From contig JAFSIQ010000049.1 in the NCBI GenBank assembly GCA_017439675.1, positions 1-43,504 on the forward strand: a DNA stretch of 43,504 bases. The letters run 5' to 3'. The stretch comes from Lachnospiraceae bacterium (GTDB taxonomy: Bacteria > Bacillota > Clostridia > Lachnospirales > Lachnospiraceae). A program made the position numbers and the translations under genes. The notes beneath the pieces were generated by a model that had not been told where the DNA came from, did not search any database, and worked only from the letters and a program-made list of their open reading frames with translations. This document shows, in pieces, positions 32,682 to 39,275 of this stretch (the first letter of the stretch is position 1; each line of letters begins with the position of its first letter).

Positions 32682-33617
32682 CTAATTTTGAAACAATGGT
32701 GTAGACAAATAACGGTCTCCGGAATCCGGTAGCAACACTACAATGTTCTTCCCTGCATTTTCTGGTCTCTTTGCTAGGATAGTGGCCGCTTTTAATGCCG
32801 CCCCAGAAGAAATGCCAACCAAAATTCCTTCACTCCGTGCAAACGCTCTCCCTTCCGTAAAAGCATCCTCATTGTTTACTGTAATTATTTCATCATAGAT
32901 TTCTGTATTCAAAATCTCAGGCACAAATCCTGCACCAATTCCTTGAAGCTTGTGTGGCCCCGGCTGACCGCCAGACAGCACCGAACTGTCCGCCGGTTCC
33001 ATTGCAACAATTTTAATATCGGGATTCTTTGATTTCAAATACTCTCCAACACCAGTAATGGTTCCACCCGTACCCACACCTGCCACAAAAATATCAACCG
33101 TTCCATCGGTCTGCTCCCAGATTTCAGGTCCAGTGGAGTTAAAATGAGCAGCCGAGTTGGCAGGATTTACAAACTGACCGAGAATGACAGCACCTGGAAT
33201 ACTGCTTTTCAATTCCTCTGCCTTTTCAATCGCTCCCTTCATACCCTTGGCACCTTCCGTCAGTACAAGGTCTGCACCATACGCCGCAAGCATGGTTCTT
33301 CTCTCTATGCTCATAGTTTCTGGCAAGGTGAGAATAGCCTTATAACCTCTTGCGGCAGCCACCGCCGCCAAACCAATTCCGGTATTACCAGAGGTCGGCT
33401 CAATAATGGTTGCTCCCAGCTTTAGGATACCTTTTTCTTCTGCATCCTTAATCATGGATAACGCCGCTCTGTCCTTCACAGAACCTGCCGGATTTAAGTA
33501 TTCTAACTTTGCAAAGACGGTCGCATGTTCCACGCCAGCCACTTTGCTGTAATTATTTAACCTAAGTAGCGGAGTATTTCCAATCAACTCCAAAGCACTT
33601 TCTTTGATATTTCCCAT
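32682..33617 (-). CDS. cysK: Cysteine synthase (O-acetylserine sulfhydrylase)
   Basis: A 311-residue PLP enzyme making cysteine from O-acetylserine and sulfide. NPAGSVKDR holds the PLP lysine (Lys48), TSGNTG (75-80) binds phosphate or substrate, and GTGGTITG and a C-terminal [11 protein letters not shown] complete the family pattern. ATG 33617 follows GGAG. It has its own promoter, a palindrome in that promoter, and further upstream an element shared with metY. It follows lysR on the same strand but beyond a terminator. Confidence 0.96.
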
Positions 33618-33673
33618 TGCTTTCTTCTCCTTTACTATCATGTTTATATTATACTAACATCGATATGTTCTTG

Positions 33674-33702
33674 ATTATAAAACTCAAAATTTTGAAGTGC
33701 AA
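33674..33702 (-). promoter_or_regulatory. cysK promoter with palindrome in spacer
   Basis: On minus -35 TTGCAC (33697-33702), 17-base spacer, -10 TATAAT (33674-33679). The perfect 12-base palindrome TCAAAATTTTGA (33684-33695) fills the spacer, where a bound repressor would block polymerase. Confidence 0.75.
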
Positions 33703-33728
33703 CCCATTTTCCTAAGAATTCCCATACC

Positions 33729-33769
33729 AAAAAATACTGCCAGCCATAGTTTGTTCCTATTGCTGACAG
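33729..33769 (-). terminator. Terminator after lysR, overlapping the shared element
   Basis: On minus CTGTCAGC (33762-33769) pairs with GCTGGCAG (33737-33744), with an inner ATAG/CTAT stem, followed by TATTTTTT. It lies 83 bases after lysR. Its inner part coincides with the element described at 33739-33763. Confidence 0.75.
33739..33763 (-). promoter_or_regulatory. Candidate LysR-type site upstream of cysK
   Basis: On minus this reads GC-A-ATAG-(7)-CTATGGCTGGC, identical at 17 aligned, ungapped positions to the element at 37866-37890. The ATAG/CTAT dyad has the T-N11-A form of LysR-family sites. It is centred about 86 bases upstream of the expected cysK start. Confidence 0.55.
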
Positions 33770-33851
33770 TTTTCATTACATATTACATCAAATTCCGTTG
33801 ATTCATCTATGATTTCAATTATCCACCCCATACTATATTATCCCTTTTATT

Positions 33852-34763
33852 CTAACTCAGTACACTATCCTTGTACTTAGCAATCTCCTCCAGATACTTC
33901 TGGCCTAGCGGACTAATCGCCACACCTTTTCTGGCAATATAGCCAATCGTCATAACCTCCTCGGAATCCAGCTTCACTGCGCAATATTCATTCCCGTTCA
34001 AATCCTCGCAAATAATACCAGAGCATAGGGTGTAGCCATTAAGGCCCACCATTAAATTCAACATAGTAGCCCGGTCATTGGCTTTAATCAACTGCTTGTA
34101 TTCATAAGTACTTAACACCTCTTCTGCAAAATAGAAGGAGTTATTGTTTCCCTGGTCAAAGGATAGACACGGATAATCCTGTAACTCTTGCAGAGTGATT
34201 ACTTTTTTCTTCGCCAACGGATGACTTTTTGCAATATATACATAGATGTGGCAGTTCAAAATTTCATGGAATTCCAAATCCCGTTCCTTGAACATTTTCT
34301 CTAGTACCTTACGATTGAAATCATTAACATATAAAATTCCAATTTCACTTTTGAAACTGCTGACATCCTCAATTACATCATGGGTTCTGGATTCCCGCAC
34401 CGCAAACTCGTACTCATCCATACCGAACTGCTTCACCATCTCCATAAATGCATTCACCGCGAAGGTATAATGTTGCATAGAAACACTGAATTTCTTCTTA
34501 ATAGTGGTCTGGTCTATGTACTTTGATTCCATCAATTCATACTGCTCCACAATCTGTCTTGCATAACCGATGAATTCCTCTCCCTCCGGAGTAAGCGAAA
34601 TCCCACGATTGGTTCTTCGAAACAACTCCATTCCTATCTCTGTTTCCAACTCCTTGATCGACGCCGAAAGACTTGGCTGAGCGATAAAAAGGCTTCTTGC
34701 TGCTTCACTCATAGAGCCGGAATTGGCAACTGTAATTACATATCTAAGCTGGGTAAGTGTCAT
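33852..34763 (-). CDS. LysR family transcriptional regulator
   Basis: A 303-residue LysR protein: N-terminal winged helix-turn-helix (residues 1-60, MTLTQLRYVITVANSGSMSE then AARSLFIAQPSLSASIKELE) and a C-terminal effector-binding domain. It lies between cysK and the DegV-kinase pair with metY divergent beyond, so a role in sulfur amino-acid control is likely, with O-acetylserine or O-acetylhomoserine as plausible effectors. It is 39 bases after the DegV gene with no terminator between, so it is probably in the kinase operon. GGAGGG precedes the ATG. Confidence 0.92.
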   Translation of the reverse strand: MTLTQLRYVITVANSGSMSEAARSLFIAQPSLSASIKELETEIGMELFRRTNRGISLTPEGEEFIGYARQIVEQYELMESKYIDQTTIKKKFSVSMQHYTFAVNAFMEMVKQFGMDEYEFAVRESRTHDVIEDVSSFKSEIGILYVNDFNRKVLEKMFKERDLEFHEILNCHIYVYIAKSHPLAKKKVITLQELQDYPCLSFDQGNNNSFYFAEEVLSTYEYKQLIKANDRATMLNLMVGLNGYTLCSGIICEDLNGNEYCAVKLDSEEVMTIGYIARKGVAISPLGQKYLEEIAKYKDSVLS

Positions 34764-34802
34764 AGCGTCCCTCCATTGTATAGTAATTTTCTTCTAACGT
34801 TT

Positions 34803-35654
34803 TTACTTCGTATAAAACATAAGACCAACACTTCCCAAACCCACATTACAAAGATTGGTGGCGGATACATCCTGCATATATACATGCTTCCACTCTATTT
34901 TCTCAGTAGCTTCACGATATACCAACTCCCTCAATTCTTCCGAATCGCTTAGAACTGTAATAAAAAGCACATCCTCGCAAATAGCCTTTCTATTCCGAAA
35001 TATTTGTCTTATATATTTCTTAACATAATACTCTCTCGTGCCTAGGCACACCCCTCTAACCTTCATTGCGCCGTTCTTAAGCTTTATAATTGGCTTAATA
35101 TGAAAGATATCTAACAGATTGGAAATTGTCTGATTCACCCTCTTGTTATTTGCTATATACTGAGTTGTTTTCAACACACAACTGCAGCTTATCCTTTTCT
35201 TCGCCTTATGCAGTTCATCAACAATCACATTTGGCTCAGAATGCGTTCTTGCCATTTCGACTGCCTTTAATACAAGAAGCCCTATCCCGTGAGAAATCGA
35301 ACCAGAATCCACCACAAACACATGCTCCATATCCTGGGCCGCCACAACTGCGTGATTATACGCTTCGCTTATCTTTCGCGAAACACATATGTGAATAATT
35401 GCCTCGTCCTCATTTTTAGTCAACTCCATAAAATGATTTCTGTAGTCCTCAATCGCGGCAGGCACGCTAGAAACCTTCACATCATCCTGTTTCAAATAAT
35501 CATACATGGATGAAAAATCAACCTCTGTATAGTCCTGAAAACGCACGTCCTTCATCTCAATGTAAAATGGCAACATTCGGATTGAATATTCTTCTACTAA
35601 GCTTTCTGGCAAATCGCATATGCAGTCAGCTGATATGATTATATTATTATTCAT
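34803..35654 (-). CDS. DegV family protein coupled to hybrid kinase
   Basis: A 283-residue DegV-like protein: IIISADCICDLPESLVEEY, then DVKVSSVPAAIEDYRNHF, VVDSGSISHGIGLLVLKA and HIKPIIKLKNG. It is diverged from the first DegV of the window. Its ATG overlaps the stop of the hybrid kinase gene by 4 bases (ATGA), so the two are translated together. A lipid-linked sensing partner of the kinase is one possibility; nothing direct shows it. Confidence 0.88.
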   Translation of the reverse strand: MNNNIIISADCICDLPESLVEEYSIRMLPFYIEMKDVRFQDYTEVDFSSMYDYLKQDDVKVSSVPAAIEDYRNHFMELTKNEDEAIIHICVSRKISEAYNHAVVAAQDMEHVFVVDSGSISHGIGLLVLKAVEMARTHSEPNVIVDELHKAKKRISCSCVLKTTQYIANNKRVNQTISNLLDIFHIKPIIKLKNGAMKVRGVCLGTREYYVKKYIRQIFRNRKAICEDVLFITVLSDSEELRELVYREATEKIEWKHVYMQDVSATNLCNVGLGSVGLMFYTK

Positions 35655-37753
35655 TCATCATACTCCTCTTTGTTGATTATCAAATCCTTAGGTAACCATT
35701 TTAACAGCATTTCCTTTAAACCATCCGATTGTATTGGCTTGGACATAAAATCCTGAAACCCTTCTTCCATGAACAACTGTCTTGCATCCCCTGCCACATT
35801 TGCTGTCAGCGCAACAATCGGCATTGTTTCAACATAATCCCTTTGCAACAAACAAATATTGTGATGGGTTTCGATACCATCCATTTCCGGCATCATATGA
35901 TCCATAAATACAAGGTCATACTTCATCTGCTTAATCATTTCAATTGCTTCCATACCATTCATAGCCGTATCTACCTGTACTTCATATGGCTTCAAATGTC
36001 CCTCCATCACCTTCAAATTCAACAAGTTATCATCCACCACCAGTATTCGAGCCCCTCGTGCAGCAAATGTAGCCGGAAGCTTTCTTTTTTTCAAATAACG
36101 CTGGTGCTGATTGATGAAATCACTAAAATTTCTGGTATAAAATGGTTTGTAAATGCATTGAATGTTACCACCGACAGAAACTGGAGCCATCCGTTCTTGA
36201 ACCACAGCCAAATGATAGGATTTGGAAAGCGCATCATAATAACCGCGGTCAGCTAAGTACTCGTCCTTCCCAATAATAATGTGTGTATATGTACCATTTG
36301 AAAGACAATTTTTGAATTGTTCAAGGCTATGACAAACTTGACCTGACGCATTCCATTTTCGAATCACAGACTTAAAGGAATGATAATAGGATTCTCCGAT
36401 AAAATCAGGCACTTCCTCCACATGATAATATAGTATCCGAATAGTTTTAGAACGCCCCACTGTGACAATCGGCGTTTCATCTATAACTCTTTGAGGTATT
36501 ATTATCTTAAACTCTGTTCCCTTACCATATTCGCTCTTTACCCGTATCACACCATTCATAAGTGTTACTAATCTCTTCGTAATTGGAAGTCCTAGTCCTG
36601 TCCCTTCTACTGAACGATTCTTTTTGATATCCACCCTTCTATAGGTATCGAATATTTTGCCGATGTATTCTTTTTGTATTCCAATACCACTATCCTTCAC
36701 CGAAACCGCAAGATTAATACCATAGGTTTCTTTTCTACCGGTAAGTGTTAACAAAAATCCTCCTTTTTCTGTATATTTTAACGCATTGGTCAAAAGATTA
36801 ATGATAATCTGCTTGATTCTAACCTCATCACCATAAAGTAAATTGGGAATATCCGGGTCACAATCCACAACAAATTCAAGATCCTTATCACCCATCCTAG
36901 CAGTTGTCATATACATTACATCTTCTAGTACGTCAGACAATTTGTATTCGCTACATTGCAACTCCATCTTCCCCGATTCAACCTTAGAAAAATCTAATAA
37001 ATTATTAATAATATTCATTAAACCTTTACTAGAGCGGTATATATTTTCACTATTATCCCTTACAAGGCTAGATAAATCCTCATTCATATTCAGCTCACAC
37101 AAACCCATAATTGCGTTCATTGGCGTACGAATCTCATGAGACATATCAGCAAGAAACTCACTTTTGGAGCGATTGGCATCATCCGCTTTTCTTATGAGTT
37201 CCTTTTGTTCTTCTTCAAACCGGTCAATTCGGATAAAGATAACGAGTGACATAATCAAAAATGCCCAGTAGATAATTGGGAAACGAATTCTATAATCCTC
37301 TGAATATTGATATCCAAGACGATGCAACGGTGTCAACATATAAAGGGGGATGGATACTCCTATGAGAAAGCTCAGAATCCCCCCATAATAAAGGTTGATT
37401 AGTGCCATTCCGCCTACTGGCACAAAAAGTAACCACATGATACTAACGCCACCAACACCACCTTGATACATGAAAAACATCATCAATACATATATGGAGG
37501 ATACCACAAACCATGATAGCATTTTGGGAGATTTAATCCTTGCAAACAAAAGCATAGTCACTATCATAGTCACCGCAATGATAGCATTTACAACACCCAT
37601 AATGATATCTGACTTAATAAAACATACCGCACTCATAATTAGAGCATATATACTAATAAGCGAAAATGCTGTATATAGTCCGCTCTGATTCACGACCTTG
37701 CTTTTCTCGCGCACATGTGAAATATATTCTAATACTCTATTAACCTTCGACAT
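35651..37753 (-). CDS. Membrane hybrid histidine kinase
   Basis: A 700-residue sensor kinase. Residues about 27-175 hold roughly six membrane helices with little outside sequence. A HisKA domain has MSHEIRTPMN (His206), followed by an ATPase domain with N box Asn323, DSGIGI (354-359) and GTGLGL (384-389). Residues 435-555 look like a receiver that lost its phosphate-accepting Asp (HIIIGKDE) but kept the late Lys (YKPF). The final receiver (568-690) is intact with Asp618. ATG 37753 after GGGGTGGG is used; the frame opens to 37858. No output gene other than LysR lies nearby. Confidence 0.93.
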   Translation of the reverse strand: MSKVNRVLEYISHVREKSKVVNQSGLYTAFSLISIYALIMSAVCFIKSDIIMGVVNAIIAVTMIVTMLLFARIKSPKMLSWFVVSSIYVLMMFFMYQGGVGGVSIMWLLFVPVGGMALINLYYGGILSFLIGVSIPLYMLTPLHRLGYQYSEDYRIRFPIIYWAFLIMSLVIFIRIDRFEEEQKELIRKADDANRSKSEFLADMSHEIRTPMNAIMGLCELNMNEDLSSLVRDNSENIYRSSKGLMNIINNLLDFSKVESGKMELQCSEYKLSDVLEDVMYMTTARMGDKDLEFVVDCDPDIPNLLYGDEVRIKQIIINLLTNALKYTEKGGFLLTLTGRKETYGINLAVSVKDSGIGIQKEYIGKIFDTYRRVDIKKNRSVEGTGLGLPITKRLVTLMNGVIRVKSEYGKGTEFKIIIPQRVIDETPIVTVGRSKTIRILYYHVEEVPDFIGESYYHSFKSVIRKWNASGQVCHSLEQFKNCLSNGTYTHIIIGKDEYLADRGYYDALSKSYHLAVVQERMAPVSVGGNIQCIYKPFYTRNFSDFINQHQRYLKKRKLPATFAARGARILVVDDNLLNLKVMEGHLKPYEVQVDTAMNGMEAIEMIKQMKYDLVFMDHMMPEMDGIETHHNICLLQRDYVETMPIVALTANVAGDARQLFMEEGFQDFMSKPIQSDGLKEMLLKWLPKDLIINKEEYDE

Positions 37754-37822
37754 ATTCCCACCCCACTTCGGGTAATTTATCCATTTCTTATGCAATAACA
37801 AAGTGTAAATAATTACCTTTTT

Positions 37823-37851
37823 ATTATATTCTTGTGTGAATAGAATAGCAA
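37823..37851 (-). promoter_or_regulatory. Promoter of kinase-DegV-lysR operon
   Basis: On minus -35 TTGCTA (37846-37851), 17-base spacer, -10 TATAAT (37823-37828). The shared element at 37866-37890 lies just upstream, centred about 62 bases before the expected start. Confidence 0.65.
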
Positions 37852-37865
37852 GATGCAATTATTTT

Positions 37866-37890
37866 GCTATAGATTTTGCCTATGGCTGGC
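37866..37890 (+). promoter_or_regulatory. Candidate LysR-type site between metY and kinase operon
   Basis: GC-T-ATAG-(7)-CTATGGCTGGC, with dyad CTATAG / CTATGG, lies between divergent promoters at about -60 from both expected starts. It matches the cysK upstream element at 17 positions with a wholly different 7-base centre. Unlike the cysK copy it has no flanking stem that would make it a terminator. Confidence 0.6.
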
Positions 37891-37900
37891 TACTGTTTTT

Positions 37901-37929
37901 TTGTACTTTTCTTTTATGGAGAATAATTA
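37901..37929 (+). promoter_or_regulatory. Promoter of metY
   Basis: -35 TTGTAC (37901-37906), 17-base spacer, -10 TAATTA (37924-37929). Start expected near 37936, giving a leader of about 60 bases. No SAM riboswitch or T-box is visible in it. Confidence 0.6.
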
Positions 37930-37997
37930 TATACTTACACCATGCAAAAGAACTATAAAACACACATATCAAAGCTAAGAAAGTGAGGAAAATAAAC

Positions 37998-39275
37998 ATG
38001 ACAAGTAATACAGGAACAAAATGTATCCAGGAGGGATGGAAACCTTCTGAGGGTGAACCAAGACAGCTTCCTATTTATCAGAGTACTACATTTAAGTATG
38101 ACACAAGCGATACCATGGGACAGTTGTTCGACTTAGAGAGAGAAGGTTACTTCTACACTCGTTTGCAGAACCCAACTAACGATGCGGTTGCTGCAAAGAT
38201 TTGCGCACTAGAAGGCGGTGTGGCTGCAATGCTTACTTCTTCTGGTCAGGCAGCTAACTTCTATGCCATTTTCAACATTTGTGAGGCGGGCGATCATTTC
38301 ATCACATCCTCTTCTATCTACGGAGGAACATACAACTTATTCGGTGTAACCATGAAGAAAATGGGAATCGAGTGTACATTTGTAGACCAGACTCTTCCAG
38401 CAGAGGAATTAGAAAAGTATTTCAAACCAAACACAAAGGCTGTTTTTGGTGAGACAATTACAAACCCAACGGTATCCATTTTTGACTTTGAGAAATTCGC
38501 AAAGCTTGCACACGATCATGGTGTACCATTAATTGTTGATAATACATTTGCAACCCCTGTAAACTGTAGACCATTTGAGTGGGGCGCAGACATCGTAACA
38601 CACTCTACTACCAAATACATGGATGGTCACGCAGTGGGCGTTGGCGGTTGTATCGTAGACAGTGGTAACTTTGACTGGATGGCACATGCCGAAAAATTCC
38701 CAGGGCTTACTACACCAGATGAGTCTTACCACGGAATCACATATGCTGAAAGATTTGGAAAAGGTGCTTACATTACAAAGGCAACTGCACAGCTTATGAG
38801 AGACTTAGGTTCTATCCAATCACCACAGAATGCATTCTACTTAAATCTCGGATTGGAGACCTTACATCTTAGAATGAAGCAGCACTGCGAAAATGCTTTA
38901 GCAGTTGCGAAATACTTGAAAGCAAATGACAAGGTAGCATGGGTACATTACGCAGACCTTGAAGGTGACGAGTACAACGAGCTTGCAAAGAAATATATGC
39001 CAAACGGAACCTGTGGTGTATTGGCATTTGGTATTAAAGGTGGTCGTGAGGCTTCCATCAAGTTCATGGACAGCTTGAAGTTTGCTTCCATCGTAACCCA
39101 CGTTGCAGATGCAAAAACTTGCTTGTTACATCCTGCAAGCCACACACATCGTCAGATGAGTGAGGAACAGTTAATTGAAGCTGGCGTTGCTCCAGATTTG
39201 ATTCGTTTGTCTGTAGGAATTGAAAATGTGGAAGACTTGATTGCCGACTTAGAACAGGCATTTGCACAAGTATAA
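37998..39275 (+). CDS. metY: O-acetylhomoserine sulfhydrylase
   Basis: A 425-residue Cys/Met-metabolism PLP enzyme that makes homocysteine from O-acetylhomoserine and sulfide. PLP lysine is Lys206 in [25 protein letters not shown] and [11 protein letters not shown] are family motifs, and the C-terminal LRLSVGIE-type segment ([14 protein letters not shown]) is present. ATG 37998 follows GAGG by 9 bases; GTG 37983 would include that site within the protein. It is the only complete plus-strand gene and ends in a strong terminator. Confidence 0.95.

What the first reader, a model, noticed from the sequence alone, without database searches (positions are those of the whole stretch)
33739..37890. 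Shared dyad element links cysK, metY and the kinase-DegV-LysR operon
The element GC-N-ATAG-N7-CTATGGCTGGC occurs at 33739-33763 (minus, upstream of cysK) and 37866-37890 (plus, between metY and the kinase operon). Seventeen positions match without gaps while all seven central bases differ, the pattern of a protein-bound dyad. It has the T-N11-A form of LysR-family sites, and a LysR gene lies between the two copies. At the second site it is about 60 bases upstream of both divergent start points. I infer one regulon: cysteine and homocysteine synthesis plus autoregulation. Caveat: the cysK copy is inside the lysR terminator hairpin, so part of the match could be structural.
Basis: partly seen in the sequence, partly recalled or inferred. 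Interest (0 to 1): 0.75.

Follow-up and report, generated by a model that had tools for sequence, protein, structure and literature searches.

The report
Methionine regulator's operators beside lysR
Two copies of a palindromic DNA switch flank a regulator gene in a gut bacterium; relatives carry the same switch in front of methionine genes, and one copy here also looks like the regulator gene's own transcription stop signal.

Summary
In detail: both 25-base copies exist as described, and they are the only perfect matches to their shared core in the held 2.0 Mb, 70% complete genome. Relatives show what they are. A 67-bp module (ATAG-N7-CTATARCYRGC, a T-rich stretch, and a promoter at fixed distance, dyad centre near -66) lies in 47 of 80 named loci of this LysR family; five Markov-shuffled sets had none. 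Downstream are metN, metQ-like, metE, metF and metY-like genes, sometimes cysK or lysR itself. The core arms resemble the streptococcal MET-box of MtaR/MetR/CmhR; the inner bases do not. The metY copy fits the whole module (40.0 bits). The cysK copy has a strong operator half (31.7 bits), but its promoter is 20 bp too far and the three nearest relatives lack it. It also folds as a lysR terminator hairpin. Such overlap recurs: 23 of 63 tandem sites pair at 8 or more of 10 flank positions, with covariation and a stronger T-tract. LysR binding, activation and any effect on cysK are inferred.

The parts
37866..37890 (+). operator copy upstream of metY (core ATAG-N7-CTAT 37869-37883)
   Evidence: best full-module score of the window, 40.0 bits; present upstream of metY in G018, G003 and G008
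37869..37935 (+). 67-bp operator-promoter module of metY; -35-like CTTTTC 37906-37911, -10 TATACT 37930-37935
33739..33763 (-). operator copy between lysR and cysK
   Evidence: operator half 31.7 bits; absent in three sister genomes
33736..33770 (-). hairpin with the operator in its stem and loop, followed by a T-run (about 33727-33735): proposed lysR terminator
   Evidence: family covariation; T-tract. The generic terminator scan did not list it; the stem has one internal mismatch
33674..33702 (-). predicted cysK promoter TTGCAC-17-TATAAT, 66 bp from CTAT to the -10 instead of 46
   Evidence: read; weak -35, not listed by the scans
37823..37851 (-). predicted promoter of the kinase-degV-lysR genes (TTGCTA-17-TATAAT)
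33852..34763 (-). lysR, proposed regulator
   Evidence: HTH_1 and LysR_substrate over Pfam gathering scores
32682..33641 (-). cysK, cysteine synthase A (start at 33617 is likely)
   Evidence: TIGR01139 448.5 bits, over cut-off
37998..39275 (+). metY, O-acetylhomoserine/O-acetylserine sulfhydrylase
   Evidence: TIGR01326 587.8 bits, over cut-off
34803..35654 (-). degV-family gene between lysR and the metY site
   Evidence: TIGR00762 over cut-off
35651..37753 (-). hybrid histidine kinase
   Evidence: HisKA, HATPase_c, Response_reg; 700-aa frame

Best explanation
The element is the operator of the LysR-type protein encoded between the copies, a MET-box-like regulator of methionine and cysteine supply. 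A LysR tetramer would hold the dyad (centre near -66) with one dimer and the T-rich stretch beside the -35 with the other, and activate metY when sulfur amino acids run short; in relatives it would do the same for metN, metQ, metE and metF. At the cysK copy the operator sequence is built into the lysR terminator hairpin, so one stretch of DNA ends the lysR transcript and is a good binding site upstream of cysK. Shown by computation: sequences, conservation, promoter spacing, gene context, hairpin covariation. Inferred: which protein binds, activation, the effector (O-acetylhomoserine, O-acetylserine or homocysteine), termination, and any effect on cysK or the kinase genes.
For: Module in 47 of 80 named LysR loci against 0 in five Markov sets. 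46 hits in 32 of 60 genomes against 10 reversed-control hits, 30 of the 46 before met or cysK genes. Both window copies score well with a matrix built without the window. metY copy kept in the three sister genomes. The module precedes lysR itself in 6 named loci. No SAM riboswitch at gathering score in the window or in 40 related loci. LysR homologs at 47-53% identity in three further classes keep TATAG-N7-CTATA beside methionine or cysteine genes. Hairpin covariation and T-tract.
Against: 33 of 80 named loci have no module near lysR. metY orthologs of 63-76% identity lack it in 26 of 26. cysK copy absent in three sisters and without the standard promoter. No further copy in the incomplete own genome. 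No binding data. Divergent sites are not significantly worse paired than tandem ones (p 0.33). The generic scan lists no terminator there.
Confidence: 0.75

Rival explanations
1. Only the metY copy is an operator; the cysK copy is just the lysR terminator, either by drift or as a relic of an older lysR-target junction, and does not control cysK.
For: In G008 the hairpin and T-run at the same place survive while the ATAG/CTAT core is lost; three sisters lack the operator at cysK; no standard promoter (full score -1.0).
Against: The operator half scores 31.7 bits, above the median (28.8) of the matrix's own sites, more than a hairpin needs. Operators stand in 3 of 12 other lysR-cysK junctions, and L208 repeats the window spacing (67 against 66 bp to the -10).
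Confidence: 0.4
2. A different regulator, such as another LysR paralog, binds the dyad.
For: Relatives hold LysR paralogs of 45-60% identity, and some sites lie beside those paralogs (G005:C14, G014:C27, G010:C88).
Against: The two perfect copies in the genome lie 0.1 kb and 3.1 kb from this lysR; sites sit beside its orthologs in many genera.
Confidence: 0.12
3. The match is chance or a shared hairpin artefact without a role.
For: The pattern was defined from the two copies, so chance figures for it are post hoc.
Against: Independent matrix, fixed promoter spacing and gene context in relatives.
Confidence: 0.03

Closest known systems
Streptococcal MET-box regulon of MtaR / MetR / CmhR (LysR family)
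   Same: LysR-type gene; 17-bp dyad TATAG-N7-CTATA; targets in methionine uptake and synthesis (metQ, metE/metEF, metB); proposed activation (passages of PMC2627894 and PMC5359408)
   Different: Inner bases TTTnAAA are not kept in the window copies; extended right arm CTATRRCYRGC, T-stretch and fixed 67-bp spacing; Lachnospiraceae; operator often inside the terminator of the preceding gene. Orthology to MtaR was not tested.
CmbR/CysR and HomR, streptococcal LysR regulators of cysteine and methionine genes
   Same: LysR family, overlapping targets (passages of PMC3616900)
   Different: Their binding motifs were not compared here.
CymR-type (Rrf2) control of cysK
   Same: Also controls cysteine genes in Firmicutes (recalled)
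   Different: Several relatives' cysK promoters show a CCTA...TAGGAA dyad by eye instead of this operator; calling it a CymR box is from memory.
S-box (SAM) riboswitch control of methionine genes in Clostridia
   Same: Same target genes (stated in a passage of PMC5359408)
   Different: RNA control; no SAM riboswitch at gathering score in the window or the 40 related loci scanned.

Membership tests
LysR-type transcriptional regulator | HTH_1 and LysR_substrate domains | tested here: met
   both over Pfam gathering scores
LysR-type transcriptional regulator | T-N11-A dyad near -65 of a target promoter | tested here: met
   sequence; centre about -66 at metY and the same spacing in the module of relatives. 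Start points are predicted
MtaR/MetR/CmhR MET-box regulon | arms TATAG and CTATA | tested here: met
   metY copy 9 of 10, cysK copy 8 of 10 letters (read against the consensus)
MtaR/MetR/CmhR MET-box regulon | inner bases TTTnAAA | tested here: not met
   metY copy 2 of 6, cysK copy 3 of 6; so I claim that it works like this system, not that it is a member
MtaR/MetR/CmhR MET-box regulon | sites upstream of methionine uptake and synthesis genes | tested here: met
   in relatives; metY in the window
MtaR/MetR/CmhR MET-box regulon | regulator orthologous to MtaR | not tested
   no streptococcal MtaR sequence was fetched
MtaR/MetR/CmhR MET-box regulon | protein binds the box and activates | not testable with these tools
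   needs a bench test
intrinsic terminator (cysK copy) | stable stem-loop followed by a U-run downstream of a gene | tested here: met
   (z -4.74) and T-run, but the generic scan listed none
intrinsic terminator (cysK copy) | transcripts end there | not testable with these tools
   needs 3' end mapping

The most novel reading that the evidence does not exclude
Operator and terminator are one element: the regulator's operator is the intrinsic terminator of the regulator's own gene, so that bound LysR both activates the next gene and changes how often the lysR transcript ends there. Covarying stems keep this coupling in Lachnospiraceae, and similar hairpins occur after LysR genes on Roseburia and Priestia plasmids.
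Probability: 0.25. Interest if true: 0.72.

Novelty: new variant of a known kind. Interest (0 to 1): 0.5.

Why it matters
Methionine genes of Clostridia are usually said to be under S-box riboswitches (passage of PMC5359408). Here many Lachnospiraceae appear to use a MET-box-like LysR with a precise 67-bp operator-promoter module, so regulons can be predicted genome by genome. The repeated fusion of operator and terminator raises a testable question: how one compact stretch of DNA serves a protein and an RNA at once.

Tried and rejected
Further copies in the own genome with 1-2 mismatches: at the level of the reversed control. SAM riboswitch as the real control element: none at gathering score in the window, in 20 chosen site-bearing or lysR loci (one c-di-GMP-II, one fluoride riboswitch) or in 20 of the 30 metY loci (two T-boxes, one GA-cis). 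The idea that only tandem sites carry hairpins: not supported (63 tandem, 11 divergent; p 0.33 for pairing, 0.07 for energy; 3 of 11 divergent sites also pair at 8 or more of 10). cysK as a general target: rejected, 5 of 45 others. metY as a general target: rejected, 0 of 26 orthologs of 63-76% identity. No structure prediction was run.

Papers: search listings only (0 papers; 0 papers); passages of PMC5359408, PMC3616900 and PMC2627894 and of PMC7857596 (no occurrence of LysR). The listings showed no paper whose title or abstract start describes this regulon in Lachnospiraceae or a LysR operator fused with a terminator; subscription papers are mostly not held.

Full report
Setting. The window is contig C38 of a 1.99 Mb, 70% complete draft genome. 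The closest of the 80 named LysR loci kept is from a goat-colon Lachnospiraceae draft genome (L200, 94% identity), so I take the organism to be Lachnospiraceae (inference). Genes: cysK, lysR, degV and a hybrid kinase on the minus strand, metY on the plus strand.

Observation. Both copies are present exactly as stated and are the only perfect ones in the held genome.

What it is. Of 60 genomes (own included) 27 hold a LysR of at least 63% identity. The DNA beside 31 LysR genes of relatives and the window's showed ATAG-N7-CTAT next to lysR repeatedly, often with 22 bp from CTAT to the -35 and 46 bp to the -10. A fixed 67-bp pattern with up to one mismatch gave 46 hits in 32 of 60 genomes, against 10 hits of the reversed pattern. 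Downstream genes: metN 15, metE or MetE-like 8, metY 4 (one is the window), cysK 2, metF 1; the other 16 have other, unclear or no genes, among them an Rrf2-family gene in G022. Ten products were checked with NCBIfam (the two MetN are below that model's cut-off); the rest were read from their N-termini.

Independent test. 47 of 80 have a site of at least 16 bits; five Markov-shuffled sets (one strand scanned, count doubled) have none even at 10 bits. At 14 bits there are 48 sites in 47 loci, and 33 loci have none. By regex and reading, I count: metN 17, metY-like 12, MetQ-like 6, lysR itself 6, SGNH-hydrolase-like 2, cysK 1, cystine-permease-like 1, unassigned 3. Only three of these products were scanned with NCBIfam and matched (one MetN, one MetQ-like, one permease, all below their closest models' cut-offs). 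L200, L201, L202 and L244 have the contig lengths of genomes already in the first set (G008, G023, G017, G002).

Consensus. From 71 sites, without the window and without the metY sites of G018, G003 and G008 (two other sites of G003 are in): ATAG..AaAacCTATAAC.AGc..tAttTTTTatGTATTataCa, then TATA.T at positions 62-67. The window metY site scores 40.0 for the full module (operator half 24.1). The cysK copy scores 31.7 for positions 1-34; the median of the matrix's own sites is 28.8, and the highest score in 40 Markov windows is 14.7. Its full score is -1.0, because the cysK promoter (TTGCAC-17-TATAAT) lies 66 bp from CTAT, not 46. Twenty bp is close to two helical turns, so action from the same face remains possible (inference).

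Conservation. metY copy: present in G018 and G003, and in G008 with the -10 shifted by one base; absent in 26 of 26 metY orthologs of 63-76% identity; metY-like paralogs of 45-49% identity have it in 6 of 9 regions, though those sites had helped to build the matrix. cysK copy: absent at the orthologous cysK of the same three sisters, present in 5 of 45 other cysK upstream regions (three of the five had helped to build the matrix, and two lack the standard promoter) and, counting the window, in 4 of 13 lysR-cysK tandem junctions. L208 repeats the window layout, with 67 bp to the -10. So both window sites are specific to a small lineage, in a regulon whose core elsewhere is methionine uptake and methionine synthase.

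Operator and terminator in one. The cysK copy folds to -18.3 kcal/mol (z -4.74) and is followed by a T-run; the metY copy does not stand out. The generic scan lists no terminator in 33500-38100; the stem has one internal mismatch. Of 76 distinct sites, 63 follow a gene on the same strand, 11 are divergent and 2 lacked context, by simple ORF calls. Of the 63, 23 pair at 8 or more of 10 flank positions. Mean pairing is 6.57 against 5.38 when right arms are dealt anew (largest of 1000: 5.81). Pair by pair: 115 cells changed on both sides against 60.6 shuffled (largest slid version 77); covariation 0.264 against 0.143 (largest slid 0.199). Relatedness can inflate the shuffle comparison. The 23 hairpin formers have a stronger T-tract than the 36 sites with at most 6 pairs: 6.74 against 4.36 T in 8, p 9e-7. 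In 13 of the 63 the operator overlaps the stop codon of the preceding gene, by ORF length mostly lysR; in 12 of these the stop is the TAG of ATAG. Against the idea: divergent sites are not significantly worse paired (p 0.33; mean 6.18 against 5.15 dealt anew, largest 6.27).

Breadth. Four of the 12 listed plasmid hits (3336 records matched) were opened. Roseburia 831b (53%): ATAGTTTCAAACTAT in a hairpin with T-run at the LysR stop. Priestia (52%): upstream of a transporter closest to a cysteine/O-acetylserine exporter model, below cut-off. Rhodococcus (48%): LysR divergent from mesX and methionine synthase. Selenomonas (47.5%): upstream of a MetE-like gene over cut-off. TATAG-N7-CTATA matches at 8, 10, 9 and 10 of 10 positions; Markov maxima were 9, 9, 8 and 9, so the Roseburia score alone is not remarkable.

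Known kind. The arms resemble the streptococcal MET-box TATAGTTTnAAACTATA of MtaR/MetR/CmhR (passages); the inner bases of the window copies do not. It works like that system; membership is not claimed, because orthology was not tested and the full consensus is not met. The closest solved structures are generic LysR proteins of at most 62.6 bits.

Verdict. Observation confirmed, interpretation partly supported: a well-supported LysR operator at metY, and before cysK an operator sequence fused with the proposed lysR terminator, whose effect on cysK is uncertain.

Noticed in passing
34803-37753: The degV and hybrid kinase genes stand between lysR and the metY site here; neither was seen in the other fetched loci (degV at E <= 1e-20, kinase over 40% identity), so they look like a lineage-specific insertion. 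In G018 and G008 lysR and metY are direct divergent neighbours.
   Followed up: partly
L207 1325-1954, L232, L188 1492-2124: The module precedes a gene that reads like an SGNH hydrolase (GDSN motif by eye); the L207 product matched no NCBIfam model at 1e-15. Its link to methionine is unexplained.
   Followed up: partly
L187 1621-2085 (G022): The module precedes an Rrf2-family gene close to, but below cut-off for, IscR and CymR: possible hierarchy between methionine and cysteine regulators.
   Followed up: no
L307 1304-4427, L308 3501-5654: The LysR family with its dyad sits beside mesX-methionine synthase in Rhodococcus and a MetE-like gene in Selenomonas; the paper on these synthases holds no mention of LysR.
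   Followed up: partly
33617: The cysK start is likely the inner ATG at 33617 (MGNIKES, behind an AGGAG), as in relatives, not 33641.
   Followed up: no
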